A stretch of 37,373 nucleotides of DNA. Source: a virus. Below the pieces are notes generated by a model. It had not been told where the DNA came from. It ran no database searches and was given only the letters and a program-made list of their open reading frames with translations. This document shows, piece by piece, positions 3,108 to 33,725 of this stretch (position 1 is the first letter of the stretch; each line of letters opens with the position of its first letter). Position numbers and translations under genes: made by a program. The stretch spans positions 491,585 to 528,957 of the IMG/VR virus record IMGVR_UViG_3300035182_002586; one strand, written 5' to 3'.

Positions 3108-3941
3108 ATGAAACCGACTTTGAACCTACCCTCGCTAGCGGCCGCTCTGCGCATTCACCCCACACACGCTGCTCACCTTGTGAGGGCGATGAGGGCGATG
3201 AGGGCGGGAACAAGTCAAGTGGCTGCCCTCGCCGACGAGATCGAGAGGGTGGCGCAACGCCGGAGTCCGCGGGAATCGATCAGCGTAACGCCTCCGCGAC
3301 CAACAAGGGGACCCGAAGAACGGGAGTGGCGCCGACTGTACGCGCGTACGAGTGAGGCCCGAAGTAACAACCTTACCCGCAAGGCCGCCGCTGCCATGCG
3401 GTTTGACTACAACGACGGCGACTCGCAATACGAAGCGTTCTGCAAGCGTTTCGGCTACGGTTCAACCGAAGAGGTGTTCCGCGCCGCTATTCGCCCGTGG
3501 GAGATCGGTTGGCGCGGTGTGGAAGTCGGAAATGTCCGGTTCGGCAAGCTGGAAAAACCACTGAGCCCGACGATGCCCCCGTCTCGTCGATCCAATACAC
3601 CCGTCGACTTCTACCGGTTGCTGTACCTCACGAAGCCGGTAGGTGTCTCGTTCGACGACATGTACGGTCAGTCGATCTGTGGGTTCACGAGCCCGTGCCG
3701 TCGTTTCGCTATGGCCTTCTACTTCCACAAGTATGAGCTTGCAGCCTACCAATACGTCCGCAAAGACCTTGCTGTACGTACGCGTGAACTGCGCGGGCAG
3801 TTCATCATTCAGTCTGGTATCCCGGGCGTCGACAATGGTGTCAATACGAACGACGTCGACGCGAAACGATGGTTCCGAATGGTAGCTACCGCTATGCGCC
3901 GAAAGTGGAAGGTCTACCCGGGTAACAACTTCGACATATAA
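3108..3941 (+). CDS. Hypothetical protein
   Basis: 277 residues from ATG 3108, which follows a GGCGGAGA ribosome site. An earlier in-frame start at 3006 would overlap the previous gene heavily. The N-terminal 30 residues form a helix containing a GAGGGCGAT micro-repeat (RAMRAMRAG). The rest is rich in aromatic and basic residues (AFCKRFGYGSTEEVFRAAI, DFYRLLYLTKPVG, RRFAMAFYFHKYELAAYQYV). Base composition is visibly less G/C-biased than in the flanking genes, which hints at a separate acquisition. No family is recognised. Confidence 0.75.
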   Translation: MKPTLNLPSLAAALRIHPTHAAHLVRAMRAMRAGTSQVAALADEIERVAQRRSPRESISVTPPRPTRGPEEREWRRLYARTSEARSNNLTRKAAAAMRFDYNDGDSQYEAFCKRFGYGSTEEVFRAAIRPWEIGWRGVEVGNVRFGKLEKPLSPTMPPSRRSNTPVDFYRLLYLTKPVGVSFDDMYGQSICGFTSPCRRFAMAFYFHKYELAAYQYVRKDLAVRTRELRGQFIIQSGIPGVDNGVNTNDVDAKRWFRMVATAMRRKWKVYPGNNFDI

Positions 3942-9022: not shown

Positions 9023-9223
9023 TCACCCAACCTCCGCCCGGATGTCCCGGATCCCCACCCGCTTGCGCACACGCCGCGTCGCCCGCTTGATCGCCTTGCG
9101 GGCCTTGCGACGACACCGAACCTTTGATGCGCCGTAAGGGCCCGGTTTGCCACTCGGACCGTCCGGCCAGTTCGTCCGAGCCAACGCGTCCTTCAACGCC
9201 TCGACCTTGCGCTCGAACTTCAT
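9023..9223 (-). CDS. Small strongly basic protein
   Basis: 66 residues from ATG 9223, overlapping the upstream TGA (TGATG). A helix (MKFERKVEALKDALARTNWP) is followed by an Arg/Lys-rich tail (RCRRKARKAIKRATRRVRKR), strongly suggesting nucleic-acid binding. Function otherwise unknown. Confidence 0.7.
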   Translation of the reverse strand: MKFERKVEALKDALARTNWPDGPSGKPGPYGASKVRCRRKARKAIKRATRRVRKRVGIRDIRAEVG

Positions 9224-9600
9224 CACATGCCCTTGGCGTAGTCCTCGCAGCTCATGAACTCGCAACCGAGAAGCGTCCCGATCAGCTCCGCCAGAACCAC
9301 CGCGTCCGCCATCGACGAGTTGAGCTTACGCTCCACGTAGTTCGGCGCCAGGTAGCCACCGTCGCTCGGCACCACCATCGAAGGCGCACGGAACCCGTTC
9401 ACCCACGACACGAGAACCCCCGTCCCCTCCCGACCAAGACCACAGGCCGTGCACGCCTCCGGTCCGAGCCGCCCCAACTCCGTCAGGACCAGGACGTACC
9501 GCGTCCCGTTCCCCGGTTGGTACTCCACGAAGCGCGCCCCCTCGGCCTCGCTCTGCTTCGTGATCCCCTCCGCCACCGTCGCTTTGGTTCGCAGCTCCAT
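9223..9600 (-). CDS. Hypothetical protein, first gene after the CRISPR array
   Basis: 125 residues from ATG 9600. A class B box lies 8 bp upstream, between the array end and this start, so it can be transcribed apart from the array or by read-through of it. Visible elements: GNGTRYVLVLTELGRLGPEA, CTACGLG, and a helix SMADAVVLAELIGTLLGCEF. No known Cas or anti-CRISPR family is recognised. It begins a six-gene operon running to 7409. Confidence 0.75.
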   Translation of the reverse strand: MELRTKATVAEGITKQSEAEGARFVEYQPGNGTRYVLVLTELGRLGPEACTACGLGREGTGVLVSWVNGFRAPSMVVPSDGGYLAPNYVERKLNSSMADAVVLAELIGTLLGCEFMSCEDYAKGM

Positions 9601-9634: not shown

Positions 9635-10254
9635 GTCTCGGCGTACCGAGCAATCTGCGTGCGTTCCTAGTTGGCCTCGCCCCGTGAGAGGCCGGTGACC
9701 ACGACGCGTCTCGGCGTACCGAGCAATCTGCGTGCGTTCCTAGGGGTGAGCAGGAGGTTCGACATGCACGACGACGACGTGTCTCGGCGTACCGAGCAAT
9801 CTGCGTGCGTTCCTAGTCACCATCGTCGAGGGGACGGGGTTGGGCTTCACCGTGTCTCGGCGTACCGAGCAATCTGCGTGCGTTCCTAGTACTCGCCGAG
9901 GTCTTGAGGGTCTGCGTCGAGGGCTTGTCTCGGCGTACCGAGCAATCTGCGTGCGTTCCTAGCCCTCGGCCGTCGCACGCTTCGCCGTTCGTGTGTACCG
10001 TCTCGGCGTACCGAGCAATCTGCGTGCGTTCCTAGTTGCGACGTTCGAGGCCGACCAAGGCTCCGGTATCGTCTCGGCGTACCGAGCAATCTGCGTGCGT
10101 TCCTAGGCGCCTCGAAGCAGATCACGTGATCCCATGGGTCACTCGTGTCTCGGCGTACCGAGCAATCTGCGTGCGTTCCTAGCGAGAGGGCTCTCCCGAA
10201 CAGGAAGGACCTTCCTCAGTCTCGGCGTACCGAGCAATCTGCGTGCGTTCCTAG
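9635..10254 (-). CRISPR. CasPhi-type CRISPR array, 9 repeats and 8 spacers
   Basis: Nine identical 36-bp repeats start at 9635, 9708, 9781, 9854, 9927, 10000, 10071, 10147 and 10219. Spacers in the same order are 37, 37, 37, 37, 37, 35, 40 and 36 bp. Read on the minus strand, the repeat ends ATTGCTCGGTACGCCGAGAC: an ATTG, then a 5-bp stem (CTCGG / CCGAG) with a 4-nt loop, then AC. This 3' handle is the hallmark of CasPhi (Cas12j) crRNAs, whose spacer follows the GAGAC end. The crRNA sense is therefore minus, the same as the nuclease gene, and the array begins 7 bp after its stop codon. There is no room for a separate leader, so co-transcription with the nuclease, or a promoter inside its 3' end, is likely. 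I found no protospacer for any spacer within the window by eye. Confidence 0.97.
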
Positions 10255-10261
10255 GGACCGC

Positions 10262-12652
10262 CTAAATGCTGAGTGTGTCTGAGGGGTTGTACACCGGATT
10301 GCGAGAGGCGTCACCAGGAGACTTGTCCACCCCGTCGTCAGACGAGCCCTCCTGGACAGACGGCTCCGTTTTCTGCTTAGGTTTCAGAGGCTTGCGAGCC
10401 TTGCGAGCGGTCCCCGCCTTTTGAACGTCACCCGACCGCTCGCGAACCGGGGGCTTCGGCATGGCCTTACCGGTCAGAGCAACACGCTCAATGTTGTCCG
10501 TCGCGACCTCCAGGTCCGCGTGAAGCGTCGCCCCACACTGGAGGCAAACGAACTTCTCCCCATTGCGGTTACCCTTGTCACAGTGGCCGCACCGCGGGCA
10601 CGTCATGCTCGTCCGCTGCGGAGTGACTTCGATGACGTACGACCCACGGTGAAGGCCGAGGTCTGAGAACGCCTTGTGGAGCGCTTGGATGACCCAGCGA
10701 TTCTCTTTCTTCGCCGTGAAGAAAGCGTCCCAGCCCCGATCCCGCTTCCCCTTGCCGTGGAAGAAGCCGACGTTCAGGTCCTCGATGACGAACACCACAC
10801 GCTCGCACTGCGTGTACCTCTTCGCCTCACGCTCGATGAAATTGACGCACCGACGAGCCAGCTCCAACTTCTGCTTCGCCAGCTTCGCGAAGGTCGGGTG
10901 GGCCCGCTTGAGGTCGAGCACGGCCTTGTTCAGAGCATCGCGCGTGTCCTTCGTAAGCCGGGGCCGCACACCCTCCATGCGAGAGATGCGCAGGTCGCGG
11001 AACTTGAGGGTCTCGCCCTCCTTGTTCTTGAAGTAGACGAGAGACTCGTCACCCCCCTTGCGGAGCACCGCGTCCACGATGAACGTGCTGTGCCCGGTCA
11101 TCTCTCCCCACGGCACGTCCTGCGGACTGATCGAGTACTTTTCGCAGACGCGACGACGAGCGACTTCCACGCTCACGTCACACACACGGGTGATCTCCGC
11201 CTGCTGCTCGGGCGTCATCGTCTCGAACGCCTGCGCTCGAATGGCGTCCTCGAAGGCATCCATCCGCTTACGGTAGCTGGACAGCTCCCCAAGCAGCACG
11301 TCGGAGAGGAACATCCGGTGAACCGGCTCCGCAACCAGAGCGCCCTCCTGCGCCCGAACGCGGGAGACCTTCATCGAGGCCGGGTTCGTCTGCCCAAGGT
11401 CCACCGATACGAGAGCGATCTCTTCCTTGGCCACAAGGCTCTCCAGAAGGGCCCGTGACCTAAACGTCGGGACCGTCTTCCGTGAGTGCACGTCGACCTG
11501 ACCGAGTTTGTACGTGAAGGTGATGAGCCCGCGCTGAACGTCAAAGACAGGGTACTCCGTGAAGAGGCCCAAGAGCGAATTCAAGCTCAGGCCCTCTTCT
11601 GGAGTGAAGCCGCGACGGCGGGCATCACGGAGAAGCCCCCGCACATCGATGATGGCCCAGTCCTCGCCGATCGAGATGGAGACGAGCAAAGCGTCCTTCG
11701 CGCTCGCCTTCTTGAGCGCCTCGGGGTCGTACTTCGAGGTACGGCCCGGCTTCGGCTTGTGACACGCGTTCGAGTACCACTTGCGCTGACGGCGAGACCC
11801 CTCACGCAGCGGGAACTTGTTCCTCTCCGGATCCCGCTGCCACTCGGGCACGTAACCACGCTCACCCTTCGGGATGCTCAGCCTACCCTCCGGTAGACTC
11901 TCTACCAGAACCGCGTCAGGATCCCGCCGGTAGCCCGCGAAATCCACAGACATGCCAGAAAAGCCCTGAAGATCCGTACACACACGCGGGGCCACCCCCT
12001 GGTAGCCGTAGATCGAAGGGTTCACCCCCGGAGGCTGGAGCAGACGACCCTCATCGTCCGTCGCGGACTCCACCGTTACAGGAACTTCCGGGAGACCCTC
12101 CTCGACCCGACGCCGGTTCGCCCCCTCCTGACGCTTGAGGCTCTTCTTGTTCCGGTTCTCGACCTTCTTCAGAACGCCCTTGAAACGGTTCACCGTGTTC
12201 TGAAAGATCGTATTCAGACCTTGAACCTGACGGTACCCGTAGTTCTCCACCCCCGTCTTCGCGAACCACTCCGCGTGACTCGGCTTGGATGTCCCCGGCG
12301 AGAACACGTCCAACTCCGCCACCGTGAGCCCGTAGACGTACTTCTGAATGGCCTCGGAGGCGCGAACGATCGGCCACTCCGAGAACGGGCGGCTCTGCGC
12401 CACGATCGTGCCCTTGGCCGGAGGTTTGAAGTTCGGAGGGTAGTCGCTCACCTTGTTGCGAAGGTATTCGACGCACGCCTCCTCACCCTCATGCTTGAGC
12501 TTCTTCCCCGCAGTCTTCTGATGGTCCTTCCGGAAACGGCCAGCCGGGAAGTGGGTCTTGATCACGTCGGAAAGCTTGAGGGTCGCGCTAGGAGCTGCCG
12601 CACCGCATTCACAATTCGTGGGCGCTACATCTGAGAGCGTGGGTCCAGGCAT
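10262..12652 (-). CDS. cas12j: CRISPR-associated RNA-guided nuclease Cas12j (CasPhi)
   Basis: 796 residues, in the range of CasPhi (about 700-800). Known family biochemistry: one protein processes its own pre-crRNA and cuts double-stranded DNA with a single RuvC site next to a T-rich PAM. Seen here: the N-terminal lobe has FKPPAKGTIVAQSRPFSEWP and VQGLNTIF (residues 75-150). RuvC-I is VSVDLGQTNP with Asp418, RuvC-II is VFVIEDLNVGFFHGKGKRDR with Glu624, then FTAKKENRWVIQALHKAFSD. A zinc ribbon uses Cys685, Cys688, Cys703 and Cys706. RuvC-III is HADLEVATDNI with Asp713. Intervals between the three acids (206 and 89) agree with CasPhi-2 as I remember it. All catalytic residues are present, so it should be active. 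It has about 18 extra residues near the N-terminus (with CEC) and a low-complexity basic/acidic C-terminal tail (about 728-796). A class B box lies 10 bp upstream of the ATG. No Cas1, Cas2 or tracrRNA was found. Confidence 0.96.
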   Translation of the reverse strand: MPGPTLSDVAPTNCECGAAAPSATLKLSDVIKTHFPAGRFRKDHQKTAGKKLKHEGEEACVEYLRNKVSDYPPNFKPPAKGTIVAQSRPFSEWPIVRASEAIQKYVYGLTVAELDVFSPGTSKPSHAEWFAKTGVENYGYRQVQGLNTIFQNTVNRFKGVLKKVENRNKKSLKRQEGANRRRVEEGLPEVPVTVESATDDEGRLLQPPGVNPSIYGYQGVAPRVCTDLQGFSGMSVDFAGYRRDPDAVLVESLPEGRLSIPKGERGYVPEWQRDPERNKFPLREGSRRQRKWYSNACHKPKPGRTSKYDPEALKKASAKDALLVSISIGEDWAIIDVRGLLRDARRRGFTPEEGLSLNSLLGLFTEYPVFDVQRGLITFTYKLGQVDVHSRKTVPTFRSRALLESLVAKEEIALVSVDLGQTNPASMKVSRVRAQEGALVAEPVHRMFLSDVLLGELSSYRKRMDAFEDAIRAQAFETMTPEQQAEITRVCDVSVEVARRRVCEKYSISPQDVPWGEMTGHSTFIVDAVLRKGGDESLVYFKNKEGETLKFRDLRISRMEGVRPRLTKDTRDALNKAVLDLKRAHPTFAKLAKQKLELARRCVNFIEREAKRYTQCERVVFVIEDLNVGFFHGKGKRDRGWDAFFTAKKENRWVIQALHKAFSDLGLHRGSYVIEVTPQRTSMTCPRCGHCDKGNRNGEKFVCLQCGATLHADLEVATDNIERVALTGKAMPKPPVRERSGDVQKAGTARKARKPLKPKQKTEPSVQEGSSDDGVDKSPGDASRNPVYNPSDTLSI

Positions 12653-13473: not shown

Positions 13474-14460
13474 CTAGGGGCTGAACACCTCGTCTCCCTC
13501 CATAGGCAACCCATCGAACATCCTCAGGAAAGGGTCGACAACCTCTACCACGGGAACAGGTTTGAGCGCTTCTGCTTGGATGTAGTCCAGAAGCTCGGGA
13601 TCAGGTCGGAACCACTCTCCGCGCAAACGCAGATGCTCGAACCTGAGATGCAGGTCTGCCTCGCTGTCCTTCGTGCCCAAGGTAGTCAGTAGGACCACCA
13701 CCCGATCCGGAAGGGCGGTCTTCAAGGCTCGGAGACGGTAAAGAGGGCGCTGTGTAAAGCCGATCTTGACAGGTCGATCTGGAGACCCTGCCTGAACGAA
13801 GTACACACGCTGGATGTTGTCACCCCAGGACCAGAAGCGATCCTCGTCCCGTCGCAGTGCAAGGATCTCTCGCACTTGTTCGACGTTGGGGCCCGTATAG
13901 AGGGGGTCGTAATCCTCGTCCACTTTGTGCTTCGCACGTCGGTGGTAGTCGAGGTCGTCCGGAAGCAAATCGCAGTCGGGGCAGCTACCTCGTTTGCGCA
14001 CACCCTCACGAAGTAGCTGCTTGCGTGCACCAGCAGCCGCACGGCCTCCGCCCAAAGACGATGCTCGAAAGCGCTGAACTATCGCGTGTGGGAACTCAGC
14101 CAAGTACTCCGCTGCGGACAGTCCGTGCTTCTCTTGAAGATGCTTCTCTAACTGGTCTCTGCGGAGACACCCGCACTTTAGACACACGGCCACGTCCAGA
14201 CCTACGACTAGGGCCTTGCCCGCTTTGAAGACCCGGTGCTCGGCCTGGAGGTGCGCTACGAGGCTGGAAACCGTCTCGAAGGTCTCGGCGCAGACCGGGC
14301 AAGTCGTCACTGCCTGCACAAGGGCCGGATGCTGCGGGTCTCGTTTTTCAGCACAATCTGAACAGATCGTACGAGCAGATCCGAAGAGGTCTTGGTCCCG
14401 ATGGCGGTGGCACCCAGGGCAGAACCGGCCGCTTACGGCACCCTTGTGTAGAGGTCTCAC
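13474..14460 (-). CDS. Zinc-finger protein with C-terminal GIY-YIG (T5orf172-type) domain
   Basis: 328 residues, start GTG 14460 with a class B-like GGTGTAT 11 bp upstream. Zinc sites in order: Cys14/17/33/36; then three C2H2 fingers at Cys54/57-His70/75, Cys93/96-His107/112 and Cys160/163-His173/178. The second finger with its tail (CLKCGCLRRDQLEKHLQEKH then GLSAAEYLAEFP) looks like a MucR/Ros-type bacterial zinc finger. Residues 219-290 (VYFVQAGSPDRPVKIGFTQR, then RLRALKTALPDRVVVLLT, EADLHLRFEHLRLRGEWFR) fit the T5orf172/MUG113 branch of the GIY-YIG superfamily. Inferred role: a sequence-directed DNA nuclease, perhaps homing-type or defensive. Confidence 0.85.
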   Translation of the reverse strand: MRPLHKGAVSGRFCPGCHRHRDQDLFGSARTICSDCAEKRDPQHPALVQAVTTCPVCAETFETVSSLVAHLQAEHRVFKAGKALVVGLDVAVCLKCGCLRRDQLEKHLQEKHGLSAAEYLAEFPHAIVQRFRASSLGGGRAAAGARKQLLREGVRKRGSCPDCDLLPDDLDYHRRAKHKVDEDYDPLYTGPNVEQVREILALRRDEDRFWSWGDNIQRVYFVQAGSPDRPVKIGFTQRPLYRLRALKTALPDRVVVLLTTLGTKDSEADLHLRFEHLRLRGEWFRPDPELLDYIQAEALKPVPVVEVVDPFLRMFDGLPMEGDEVFSP

Positions 14461-15359: not shown

Positions 15360-15761
15360 ATGTCCCGGTCGCTGAAAAAACGCCGTCGGTGCCGAGTCCA
15401 CAGCGAGACCTACTGGGCGTGCTGTCAGTGCGCACCGCTCTTCTTCTACGGGAACTCGGTCGAGGACGAGAAGTGCCGGAAGTGCGGCCATCCCCGATGT
15501 GCACCCTTCGTGCCCCGTCCCCCGCAGCCGGGTAGTGGCCCCAGATGCTCCCCGACAACACCCCCGAGGTCGTGCCGTCATGGGATCGGTAGGGACGCAT
15601 CCCGCCTTCGAGGGGTCGCAGTCGAAGCAACCGCTTCCTTACCCATTTTGATGGTCCGTAGCTGCGGGTACGGGTCTATCCAGTTCACGCGAACGATCGG
15701 CAGCCTTGAAGGTCGGGGACAGGTACAGGGACTCGACCGTGTTCTCGCTCCGGCCGCTTAG
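15360..15761 (+). CDS. Zinc-ribbon protein with doubtful C-terminal part
   Basis: 133 residues from ATG 15360. The N-terminal 50 residues are convincing: MSRSLKKRRRCRVHSETYWA, then CCQCAPLFFYGNS and CRKCGHPRC, a two-CxxC zinc ribbon. After about residue 60 the sequence becomes low quality (SCRHGIGRDASRLRGVAVEA) and runs 123 bp over the 3' end of the opposing dam-like gene. The natural C-terminus may have been lost to a frameshift near 15530. Confidence 0.55.
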   Translation: MSRSLKKRRRCRVHSETYWACCQCAPLFFYGNSVEDEKCRKCGHPRCAPFVPRPPQPGSGPRCSPTTPPRSCRHGIGRDASRLRGVAVEATASLPILMVRSCGYGSIQFTRTIGSLEGRGQVQGLDRVLAPAA

Positions 15762-16544
15762 GGTTGCCTGCGACGACACCCCCGCGTGGACCTCAAGATG
15801 ATGAAGACCGAGGTGCTTCGGCAGGGGCTCTCCGTAGGCTTTTTCGCCGCATCGTCCGTCGAACGAAACGATGTACGAAATGCCTCGGGCGTTGAGGGAC
15901 GCGAGGGCTTCTACGAAGCGCCCCCGGTCAAGCTGGTCCCGATACCGTCGGTCCCGACCTTCGCTGGTCCCCTGGTAGGGCGGGTCCATGTAGACGAGAT
16001 CGTGAGGTCCGGCCCGGAGCAACAACTGCTCGTAGTCACCCGCCATGACCTCCGTTCGACCGGCCAGAAGTGAGGCGGCTCCCATCACCTCTTGTCTGAG
16101 CTTCTCTGGCCGCATACCGAGGCGTCGGTTGTCGGGCGACTGGTTGAACTCGCCCCTCGGGTTGAACCTCACGGCGTTCTTCACGCAGCGGGCCAGCAAG
16201 TACAGCAGCTTGACGGGATCGCCATCTCGGTTGAAGTCCGCTCGGACCTCATCGTAGAACTCCCGCTGGCGGCCCTGCTGGTCGTTCCAGAGCGACTCGT
16301 AGCCATCGGCAACCTTCCCCGGACTGTTGAGAATGCTGGTCCAGAGGCTCGCCAGGGGCGCGAGAGAGTCACCCAGCAGGTAGCGACGGCCGAGTTGTTC
16401 CTGGGCGGCAGCCAGCGTCACGGCCGCCGACCCCGCGAACGGTTCGATGAGCGTCTCCACCCGCTTGGGGAAGAGGTCGAGGATCTTCCCCGCGAGGTTT
16501 CGCTTGCTTCCCTGGTACGGGATCGGATGGGGAACCTTGCTCAT
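15639..16544 (-). CDS. dam: Dam-like DNA adenine-N6 methyltransferase (D12 class)
   Basis: 301 residues from ATG 16544 (GTG 16547 immediately before it is also possible). Transfers methyl from S-adenosylmethionine to N6 of adenine in DNA; most relatives act on GATC, but the site here is inferred. Seen: the N-terminal PIPYQGSKRNLAGKILDLFP, SAM-binding motif I EPFAGSAAV (residues 34-42), catalytic motif IV DPPYQGT (187-193), and later ISYIVSFDGR. Length and motif order (I before IV, alpha class) match Dam/DpnM. All key motifs are present, so it should be active. A repeat region at 32589-32740 is dense in GATC. The protein could protect phage DNA from restriction or mark its own origin. Confidence 0.92.
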   Translation of the reverse strand: MSKVPHPIPYQGSKRNLAGKILDLFPKRVETLIEPFAGSAAVTLAAAQEQLGRRYLLGDSLAPLASLWTSILNSPGKVADGYESLWNDQQGRQREFYDEVRADFNRDGDPVKLLYLLARCVKNAVRFNPRGEFNQSPDNRRLGMRPEKLRQEVMGAASLLAGRTEVMAGDYEQLLLRAGPHDLVYMDPPYQGTSEGRDRRYRDQLDRGRFVEALASLNARGISYIVSFDGRCGEKAYGEPLPKHLGLHHLEVHAGVSSQATLSGRSENTVESLYLSPTFKAADRSRELDRPVPAATDHQNG

Positions 16545-16634
16545 CACTGAAAAGCCCTAGCACATTTCGTGCTCGCAGCCAAGACCGAGGGGGCGGTAAG
16601 CGGAGCACCAACCCTGCTTCGACGCACCTGCAAC

Positions 16635-23416: not shown

Positions 23417-23488
23417 TCCGCGAACTCTTCTACCTGAGCGTGACAATACACATACCTCCTGTAGGGCTGAGGGTTGACGGAGAGAGGG

Positions 23489-23782
23489 TCACACGAGGCC
23501 GAAGTTCGCCAGCACGCACTCCTGCTCGACGATCGCCTTGAGCAGGCCGTCCTTCTTCGCAGCGAGGAGCTTGTACCCCTGCGAGCCGACCGGGAAGTTC
23601 GAGTAGATCGGGTCGGCGTCGAGGTCACGGAGCTGCATGACGAGCGCGGTGCGCTCCTCGATGGCCGTGAAGACCTTGCCGGCCTCTTCGCTGTCCAGCT
23701 CGATGAAGCGGGCTTCCAGCTCGGCTTCGACGAAGTTGTAGAGCGCGGGGTTCGAGGACTTGAGGGCGGCGGCCTTGGACAT
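23489..23782 (-). CDS. Hypothetical helical protein
   Basis: 97 residues from ATG 23782. MSKAAALKSSNPALYNFVEA, then ARFIELDSEEAGKVFTAIEE and LLAAKKDGLLKAIVEQECVL. Almost entirely helical and acidic. Upstream there is a TGGATC (about 23800) but no recognisable -10 box before the ATG, unlike its neighbours. Confidence 0.7.
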   Translation of the reverse strand: MSKAAALKSSNPALYNFVEAELEARFIELDSEEAGKVFTAIEERTALVMQLRDLDADPIYSNFPVGSQGYKLLAAKKDGLLKAIVEQECVLANFGLV

Positions 23783-23858
23783 GCGCGTGGGTGGGGACGA
23801 TCCATCCGGAATCGTCACCCGGTGATCCGGCTGAAGTCGAGCTTGTCGTGCGGATCCA

Positions 23859-24308
23859 TCAGCCGACCGACCGTAGCGGGACGACCTCGGGCTTGGGGAG
23901 CATGACGGTATCACCCAAGGCGAGAACAGCATCCTCCCAAGGACCGCGCTTGAACGCCACGATGTTCGGGGGGAACTTGGCGCTTCCCCCGGCAACGGCG
24001 TTGAACCACCGCAGGCCGAAGACCTTGAGGCCGTTCTCCCCCCACAGGTCGATAAGGTACCAGTAAGGGGTGTGCGAACGGAGAATCATCTTCCCGCTGG
24101 AGTCGACGAAGCCGTCGCACGGCTTCTGCTTCGGCGCCACCGTGAACGGCGTCTCCAAGGACACGTGGAAAGGGCCGACATCGAACGTCCGGCGAGACGG
24201 GGCCGTTTCGTTCACGTGCCATGCGGCGGTGTCGGGGTGGTTGGCGAGGAGACGCAGCAGAGCGTCCCGAAGGGCCAGGGCGCGTTCGAGACGGGTCGGC
24301 TTCTTCAT
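23859..24308 (-). CDS. Hypothetical protein
   Basis: 149 residues from ATG 24308. MKKPTRLERALALRDALLRL helix, then WHVNETAPSRRTFDVGPFHV and SLETPFTVAPKQKPCDGFVD, and WYLIDLWGENGLKVFGLRWF. A small alpha/beta protein of unknown role with its own class A promoter. Confidence 0.75.
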   Translation of the reverse strand: MKKPTRLERALALRDALLRLLANHPDTAAWHVNETAPSRRTFDVGPFHVSLETPFTVAPKQKPCDGFVDSSGKMILRSHTPYWYLIDLWGENGLKVFGLRWFNAVAGGSAKFPPNIVAFKRGPWEDAVLALGDTVMLPKPEVVPLRSVG

Positions 24309-32837: not shown

Positions 32838-33725
32838 TCACCCTTCGGTGAGTGTCTTGGCCGTCTCCAGTCCTTTCGGGGTGGGCTGCCAGAAGCGCTT
32901 ACCGCCAAGGGAGCGTTTGGAGACGAGGCCCGCCTTGGTGAGGTCATAGAGGGCGTTGAAGGCGACCGTGTAGTCGACGCCTAGAGAGCGAGCGACCCAA
33001 GCGCACCGGACGGGTGCTTGAGCGGCCACGAGGACTTTGAGGACGGTCTCTGAGCGTCGGAGGGGGACGTCTTTGGGGAGGTAGTTGCGCGGCTGTTCTA
33101 AACCCACGACGAAGTGTCCGAGGGCGATGGGCCAGCCGGGCCAGTGGTTTCCGTAGAAGCGGCGGGGGTTGCCGGGTGCCCGTGAGTCGAGGAGTCCGGT
33201 GTCGTACCTTTCGAACCAGTCATCTTGGTCACGGATGCCGATGTCTCGGGCGTACTGTGTGCACTGGTTGAGGGTGAACTTCCCGATGGGTTCGATGGGT
33301 TCGGGAGCTTCTTCGGGGGGTGGTTTCACGAAGCCAGCTCGGGCATCTGCGATCCACTGCAACAGGTCGGGCCCCATGGTGAACCACTCGCCTCCGACCC
33401 TGAGGTGTTTGAACCGGGCGTGGATGGCGTGTTCTTGGTCAGACTGTGGGAGTACGAGGAGAAGGAAGACGGGGTAGGGGGTGTTGGTTCGGACCGTGCT
33501 CATCCGTGACCGAACGTCTTTAGCGACGCCGATCTTGATGCGATCGAGACAGAGGATGGCGTAGACACCTGGAGTGACGGGCGGGAGGAGCGGTGGGAGG
33601 TCGAATCCCTTCTCGATGAGGATGTCTCGTCCGTCCCGCACCCCGGAGATGGACGGGGGGTGTGGGAGGGGGGCGAGTGTCTGAACGTAGGGGCGTTTCC
33701 GTCGAGCGAGGGCGCGGGCCTGCAT
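32838..33725 (-). CDS. GIY-YIG (T5orf172-type) protein with C-terminal winged helix
   Basis: 295 residues from ATG 33725, class B box 13 bp upstream. Residues 52-126 (PGVYAILCLDRIKIGVAKDV, RSRMSTVRTNTPYPVFLLLV, EHAIHARFKHLRVGGEWF) align in pattern with the nuclease domain of the 14460 gene and with T5orf172. Residues 150-204 (TLNQCTQYARDIGIRDQDDW, NPRRFYGNHWPGWPIALG) resemble the phage-integrase repeat unit (W-GW--LG type). Residues 225-295 (ETVLKVLVAAQAPVRCAWVA, YDLTKAGLVSKRSLGGKRFW) form a winged helix. Likely a DNA-targeting nuclease or regulator of different specificity from its relative. Confidence 0.8.
   Translation of the reverse strand: MQARALARRKRPYVQTLAPLPHPPSISGVRDGRDILIEKGFDLPPLLPPVTPGVYAILCLDRIKIGVAKDVRSRMSTVRTNTPYPVFLLLVLPQSDQEHAIHARFKHLRVGGEWFTMGPDLLQWIADARAGFVKPPPEEAPEPIEPIGKFTLNQCTQYARDIGIRDQDDWFERYDTGLLDSRAPGNPRRFYGNHWPGWPIALGHFVVGLEQPRNYLPKDVPLRRSETVLKVLVAAQAPVRCAWVARSLGVDYTVAFNALYDLTKAGLVSKRSLGGKRFWQPTPKGLETAKTLTEG

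What the first reader, a model, noticed from the sequence alone, without database searches (positions are those of the whole stretch)
9635..12652. Complete hypercompact CasPhi (Cas12j) CRISPR locus
One 796-residue nuclease with an intact RuvC site (Asp418, Glu624, Asp713) and zinc ribbon (Cys685/688/703/706) is followed 7 bp later by nine identical repeats whose minus-strand 3' end has the CasPhi crRNA hairpin. Known CasPhi loci are few and come mostly from huge phages; this looks like a distinct member with all elements in 3.0 kb and no adaptation genes or tracrRNA.
Basis: partly seen in the sequence, partly recalled or inferred. Interest (0 to 1): 0.9.

Follow-up and report, generated by a model that had tools for sequence, protein, structure and literature searches.

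The report
Phage CasPhi locus plus stray crRNA hairpins
A 529-kb virus sequence carries a complete, new but otherwise ordinary CasPhi (Cas12j) DNA-cutting CRISPR locus; unexpectedly, it and other CasPhi phages also carry lone copies of the guide-RNA hairpin outside the array, which in one relative look like guides aimed at the phage's own neighbouring gene.

Summary
A 796-aa protein (10262-12652, minus strand) is followed after 7 bp by nine identical 36-nt repeats (9635-10254). The protein is a bona fide CasPhi: E=6e-210 to CasPhi-2, 9e-208 to Cas12j-SF05, 7e-162 to CasPhi-3 (41-49% identity), with all RuvC, zinc-ribbon and PAM-reading residues kept. The window ends a 528,957-bp virus record with no Cas1 hit. 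It is a new member of a known kind; only three other CasPhi records were found in IMG/VR.

The surprise lies outside the locus. The 19-nt hairpin core of the repeat recurs as single copies: one exact copy in this phage's tRNA cluster (about 2e-5 expected), about ten in a second CasPhi phage, mostly among tRNA genes, five directly upstream of casPhi in another, and more in gene leaders of huge phages without casPhi in the record. The stem covaries and the loop is UNCG-like. In L086 all five lone units carry guides matching the gene just upstream of casPhi (11-33 nt exact; four of five with a TBN PAM), and ten relatives lack casPhi at that site. No such self-targeting was found in the window's phage. 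What the lone hairpins do is unproven.

The parts
10262..12652 (-). casPhi (cas12j) gene, 796 aa
   Evidence: phmmer vs PDB: CasPhi-2 6e-210, SF05 9e-208, CasPhi-3 7e-162; fold search top 15 all Cas12j
11399..11401 (-). RuvC catalytic Asp418 codon
   Evidence: aligned with D394 of CasPhi-2 and D413 of Cas12j3
10781..10783 (-). RuvC catalytic Glu624 codon
   Evidence: aligned with E606 of CasPhi-2
10514..10516 (-). RuvC catalytic Asp713 codon
   Evidence: aligned with D695 of CasPhi-2
10535..10600 (-). zinc ribbon, Cys685/688/703/706
   Evidence: cysteines invariant in six CasPhi proteins; Pfam TNB domain
9635..10254 (-). CRISPR array: nine identical 36-nt repeats, eight spacers of 35-40 nt; transcribed strand taken as minus
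   Evidence: repeat finder, script; no other copy in the record
9635..9655 (-). hairpin half of the repeat (GATTGCTCGGTACGCCGAGAC), shown for the last repeat; same in all nine
   Evidence: fold; covariation over 23 hairpins from CasPhi and other huge phages

Best explanation
The locus is a complete CasPhi (Cas12j, type V-J) interference module of a huge phage. The nuclease gene and its array are probably one transcript. The nuclease binds the 3' hairpin of each repeat, probably cuts the pre-crRNA itself, and uses the following 14-20 nt or so as a guide to cut dsDNA next to a T-rich PAM with its single RuvC site. New spacers, if any, must come from host adaptation genes or recombination, because no Cas1 was found in the record. 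Its likely role is attack on competing phages, plasmids or the host. Shown here: family, intact catalytic and PAM-reading residues, repeat structure and layout. Inferred from characterised relatives: RNA processing, PAM, cleavage and biological role. In addition, the hairpin that CasPhi should bind is not confined to the array: the same phage holds one exact stand-alone copy in a tRNA cluster, and such copies are common in other huge phages; their role is open.
For: Full-length homology to three solved CasPhi proteins; all active-site, zinc and PAM-reading residues kept; fold search; nine identical repeats with the CasPhi-type hairpin on the gene's strand 7 bp downstream; three further CasPhi loci with arrays next to the gene and the same repeat ending; 529-kb virus record without Cas1.
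Against: No credible spacer target. The phage record may be incomplete. No expression data. Cas12j3 does not process its own crRNA (PMC8298400), so self-processing here is not certain.
Confidence: 0.9

Rival explanations
1. The protein is a TnpB or another Cas12 subtype, and the repeats belong to something else.
For: Family libraries without a CasPhi model report TnpB, Cas12f and transposase for the C-terminus.
Against: Those hits cover 50-190 C-terminal residues with weak scores; CasPhi-2, SF05 and CasPhi-3 match over some 740 residues at 540-700 bits.
Confidence: 0.01
2. The locus is a CasPhi used mainly for regulation or as an RNA processor rather than for attack. CasPhi binds stand-alone hairpins in the phage's own tRNA transcript and gene leaders as well as the array.
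For: Exact lone hairpin in this phage's tRNA cluster; about ten in G001, mostly in tRNA clusters on the tRNA strand; five directly upstream of casPhi in L086.
Against: Similar lone hairpins occur in huge phages with no CasPhi in the record, so the hairpin may serve another protein; only one clear copy in this phage; binding untested.
Confidence: 0.25
3. The lone hairpins are decoys (RNA anti-CRISPRs) or an unrelated phage leader hairpin that CasPhi repeats came to resemble.
For: Solitary repeat units that inhibit CRISPR are known in phages (PMC10651486); copies stand before start codons in casPhi-less records, 13 of 20 against 14% background.
Against: Decoys make little sense inside CasPhi phages; in L086 the sequence after each lone hairpin is a guide-like match to the neighbouring gene from guide position 1.
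Confidence: 0.35

Closest known systems
CasPhi-2 (Cas12j-2; PDB 7lys)
   Same: Full-length homology, catalytic triad, zinc ribbon, PAM glutamines, crRNA-only layout
   Different: 48% identity; longer N- and C-terminal ends; own repeat sequence
Cas12j-SF05 (PDB 8iew; PMC10663539)
   Same: 49% identity; 36-nt repeats with 35-38-nt spacers as here (35-40); no tracrRNA
   Different: Different repeat and phage; its PAM (TBN) is known, that of the window protein is not
Solitary repeat units / RNA anti-CRISPRs (PMC10651486)
   Same: Single repeat-like hairpins in phage genomes outside arrays
   Different: Here only the 19-nt hairpin half is kept, several copies per genome, in tRNA clusters and gene leaders, also in phages that own the matching nuclease
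Ectopic repeats of CreTA (PMC9458426) and viral mini-CRISPRs (PMC6858448)
   Same: Repeat-like units outside main arrays that can load a Cas effector
   Different: Different CRISPR types; in L086 the lone guides match the neighbouring gene over up to 33 nt, and no toxin was looked for

Membership tests
CasPhi / Cas12j (type V-J) | Full-length homology to characterised CasPhi proteins | tested here: met
   E=6e-210, 9e-208, 7e-162 over about 740 residues
CasPhi / Cas12j (type V-J) | Single RuvC site D-E-D plus zinc ribbon | tested here: met
   D418/E624/D713 and four Cys aligned
CasPhi / Cas12j (type V-J) | Two conserved PAM-reading glutamines | tested here: met
   Q144 and Q218 align with Q127/Q202 of SF05 and Q123/Q197 of Cas12j3
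CasPhi / Cas12j (type V-J) | Size about 700-800 aa and Cas12j fold | tested here: met
   796 aa; moderate-confidence model (pLDDT 63.6), top 15 fold hits all Cas12j
CasPhi / Cas12j (type V-J) | CRISPR array next to the gene | tested here: met
   nine repeats 7 bp downstream
CasPhi / Cas12j (type V-J) | No tracrRNA, no adaptation genes | tested here: met
   no Cas1 hit in the record; no strong anti-repeat match; the record may be incomplete
CasPhi / Cas12j (type V-J) | crRNA-guided dsDNA cleavage at a T-rich PAM | not testable with these tools
   needs protein and RNA
CasPhi / Cas12j (type V-J) | Huge-phage origin | tested here: met
   IMG/VR virus record of 528,957 bp
Solitary repeat unit (SRU/Racr), for the lone hairpins | Single intergenic copy of a CRISPR repeat away from arrays and cas genes | tested here: inconclusive
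   right kind of place, but only the 19-nt 3' core, and also in phages with the effector
Solitary repeat unit (SRU/Racr), for the lone hairpins | Inhibits a CRISPR system | not testable with these tools
   needs an interference assay

The most novel reading that the evidence does not exclude
CasPhi phages use the crRNA hairpin as a dispersed RNA module: stand-alone single-guide crRNAs or CasPhi-bound leaders sit in tRNA clusters and gene leaders, in this phage too, so CasPhi has work beyond its array; and in at least one virus (G025) hairpin-only units make CasPhi an RNA-guided, homing-like cassette aimed at the gene that flanks it.
Probability: 0.33. Interest if true: 0.85.

Novelty: new member of a known kind. 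Interest (0 to 1): 0.55.

Why it matters
The locus adds a distinct CasPhi (no closer than 49% to any in the PDB) to a family that proved rare in IMG/VR: four records found here, this one included. More important, it led to lone, covarying copies of the CasPhi crRNA hairpin outside arrays. If CasPhi binds them, phage Cas12j is also a regulator or RNA processor, or, where the guides match the flanking gene, a self-spreading RNA-guided element. Each of these is directly testable with a compact, well-studied nuclease family.

Tried and rejected
Spacer targets: array against 50,697 phage records (none) and 72,556 plasmids (one 25-nt match in Variovorax, E=0.05, too weak); array against its own record (only weak matches besides the hairpin copy); spacer 1 seed in IMG/VR (none); spacer 7 seed hit L107 over 20 nt of a GAC-repeat stretch, 26/37 in all, with CCG on the PAM side, rejected. 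CasPhi in cellular genomes: none found with the two peptide patterns used. Hairpin core in about 85,000 cellular genomes: three hits in 257 Gb, about the number expected by chance, with no array seen around them. Self-targeting by lone guides of G000 and G001 or by the arrays of G000, G001 and G002: none. A tree of six CasPhi could not resolve the order among the window protein, CasPhi-2, SF05 and the G001 protein. A DNA operator instead of an RNA hairpin was judged less likely because the loop keeps a UNCG/YNMG-like pattern (UACG, UUCG, UGCG, UGAG, CACG, CGAG; rarely UAUG, UGUG), but it is not excluded.

Full report
WHAT WAS CLAIMED AND WHAT IS THERE. All of it is in the sequence. The ORF is 10262-12652 on the minus strand, ATG start, 796 codons. 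Nine identical 36-nt repeats begin at 9635 and end at 10254, with eight unrelated spacers of 35-40 nt. The gap between stop codon and nearest repeat is 10255-10261. On the minus strand, the strand of the gene, the repeat reads CTAGGAACGCACGCAGATTGCTCGGTACGCCGAGAC, and its 3' end folds into a 5-bp stem with a UACG loop. The full repeat occurs nowhere else in the record.

THE PROTEIN IS CASPHI. A search of all PDB chains gives CasPhi-2 at E=6e-210 (residues 21-768), Cas12j-SF05 at 9e-208 and CasPhi-3 at 7e-162; the next full-length-independent hits (Cas12f, TnpB) cover only the zinc ribbon and RuvC tail at 18-35 bits. Identity to the three characterised proteins is 48, 49 and 41%. Asp418, Glu624 and Asp713 align with D394, E606 and D695 of CasPhi-2, the four cysteines with its zinc ribbon, and Gln144/Gln218 with the two PAM-reading glutamines described for SF05 and Cas12j3. 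An AlphaFold2 model from four phage sequences (pLDDT 63.6, moderate) returns Cas12j structures at the first 15 ranks of the fold search. The general family libraries gave no CasPhi hit and see only the TnpB-like C-terminus. TnpB or another subtype is excluded.

WHERE IT SITS. The window is the last 37 kb of an IMG/VR virus record of 528,957 bp. No Cas1 was found in the record. Neighbours include a D12-class DNA methyltransferase at 15639-16547 (-) and a MUG113/T5orf172-type protein at 13474-14460 (-). The gene and the array are not found in 50,697 phage records, and the scans of IMG/VR returned no other contig with an array of this repeat's hairpin (records of this genome or very near it may be left out of those scans).

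HOW IT MOST LIKELY WORKS. From characterised relatives (PMC8298400, PMC10663539, PMC9147844): the nuclease binds the crRNA hairpin, in some members cuts the precursor itself, reads a T-rich PAM (TBN or TTN) with two glutamines and cuts both strands with one RuvC site. With only 7 bp between gene and array the two are probably one transcript (inference). No convincing spacer target was found, so what it attacks is unknown.

RELATIVES. Three more CasPhi records were found in IMG/VR: L004/G001 (323 kb; 718 aa, 7 repeats), L054/G002 (362 kb; 12 repeats upstream of the gene) and L086/G025 (126 kb; 775 aa, 8 repeats). None was found in 84,980 cellular genomes with the two peptide patterns used. All four repeats end in ATTGC, a 5-bp stem, a YNMG-type tetraloop and GAC or GAGAC-like 3' ends.

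UNEXPECTED: LONE crRNA HAIRPINS. The 19-nt 3' core of the repeat also occurs alone. In the window's own phage one exact copy lies at record position 139431-139449, between tRNA-Gln and tRNA-Asn in a cluster of 12 tRNAs, on the same strand; about 2e-5 exact copies are expected. A weaker copy at 349461, two mismatches, stands 17 nt before an ATG. In G001 about ten copies are scattered, most of them in or near tRNA clusters on the tRNA strand, and most keep only the hairpin half of the repeat. A covariance model found further copies in huge-phage records with no CasPhi hit (G009, G012, G006) and in G026 and G027, which were not searched for CasPhi. The small records used as controls showed little beyond the hit that had brought them in. 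Over 23 distinct hairpins all 115 base-pair cells pair; three of five pairs change on both sides and none on one side only. Some members were found with a structure-aware model, so this leans towards pairing; the arrays of G001 and G025 were found through their proteins. In records without a CasPhi hit 13 of 20 hairpins stand 1-36 nt before the ATG of an ORF, against 14% of random places, p=2e-7 (two of the 20 are the same element in related records). In cellular genomes the exact core occurs only at chance level.

IN ONE VIRUS THE LONE UNITS LOOK LIKE GUIDES. In L086 five hairpin-only units lie directly upstream of casPhi. The sequence after every one of them matches the gene immediately upstream (3123-3872) or its 3' edge from guide position 1: 17 of 18, then 17, 33, 27 and 14 nt exact, with TCG, TCA, TCA, TTC and CCT on the PAM side. 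Ordinary array spacers of the same locus match that region over 5-7 nt, and 5000 random 36-mers over at most 11. The sequence after the last array repeat also matches a downstream gene over 18 nt, from guide position 2. Ten relatives carry the flanking genes next to each other, and no casPhi was found in their stretches. A CasPhi cassette whose lone guides aim at its own flank, in a family of viruses without casPhi there, looks like RNA-guided homing or regulation of the neighbouring gene. Against homing, its own targets are intact. The lone guides of G001 and of the window's phage match nothing in their own records, so this cannot be extended to them.

COMPARISON WITH WHAT IS KNOWN. Solitary repeat units in phages are known and some are RNA anti-CRISPRs (PMC10651486); ectopic repeats in CreTA and viral mini-CRISPRs are known (PMC9458426, PMC6858448). 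Searches of the open literature found no report of lone hairpins for CasPhi, and the passages read of the paper that named CasPhi mention none. Subscription papers, including the full CasPhi description, and supplementary tables were not readable here, so priority is not established.

VERDICT. The finding is real and correctly read: a new, distinct member of the Cas12j family, ordinary in mechanism as far as can be told. The lone hairpins are statistically solid; their function is open.

Noticed in passing
L007:1030-1050 (record G000, 139429-139449, +), outside the window: Exact 19-nt copy of the CRISPR repeat's hairpin core inside a tRNA cluster of the same phage.
   Followed up: yes
L086:3948-4173 with targets in L086:3137-3881: Five hairpin-only units upstream of another phage's casPhi; all five guides match the neighbouring gene; ten relatives lack casPhi there.
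   Followed up: yes
L010-L015, L073 (record G001): About ten scattered lone crRNA hairpins, mostly near tRNA genes, three sharing a 27-nt upstream sequence.
   Followed up: partly
L062-L069, L070-L072, L089-L092 (records G009, G012, G006, G026, G027): Lone hairpins in huge-phage records, often just before start codons; no CasPhi hit in G009, G012 and G006.
   Followed up: partly
L009 (record G000, 23448-24198, -), outside the window: A 250-codon open frame with a TnpB/Cas12-like zinc ribbon in the same phage, perhaps a decayed TnpB.
   Followed up: no
window 9223-9600 (-): A 125-aa ORF starts 34 nt after the last repeat of the array on the same strand, so the last repeat lies in its leader.
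   Followed up: no
window 13474-14460 (-) and 32838-33725 (-): Two MUG113/T5orf172-type proteins, possibly GIY-YIG-like nucleases.
   Followed up: no
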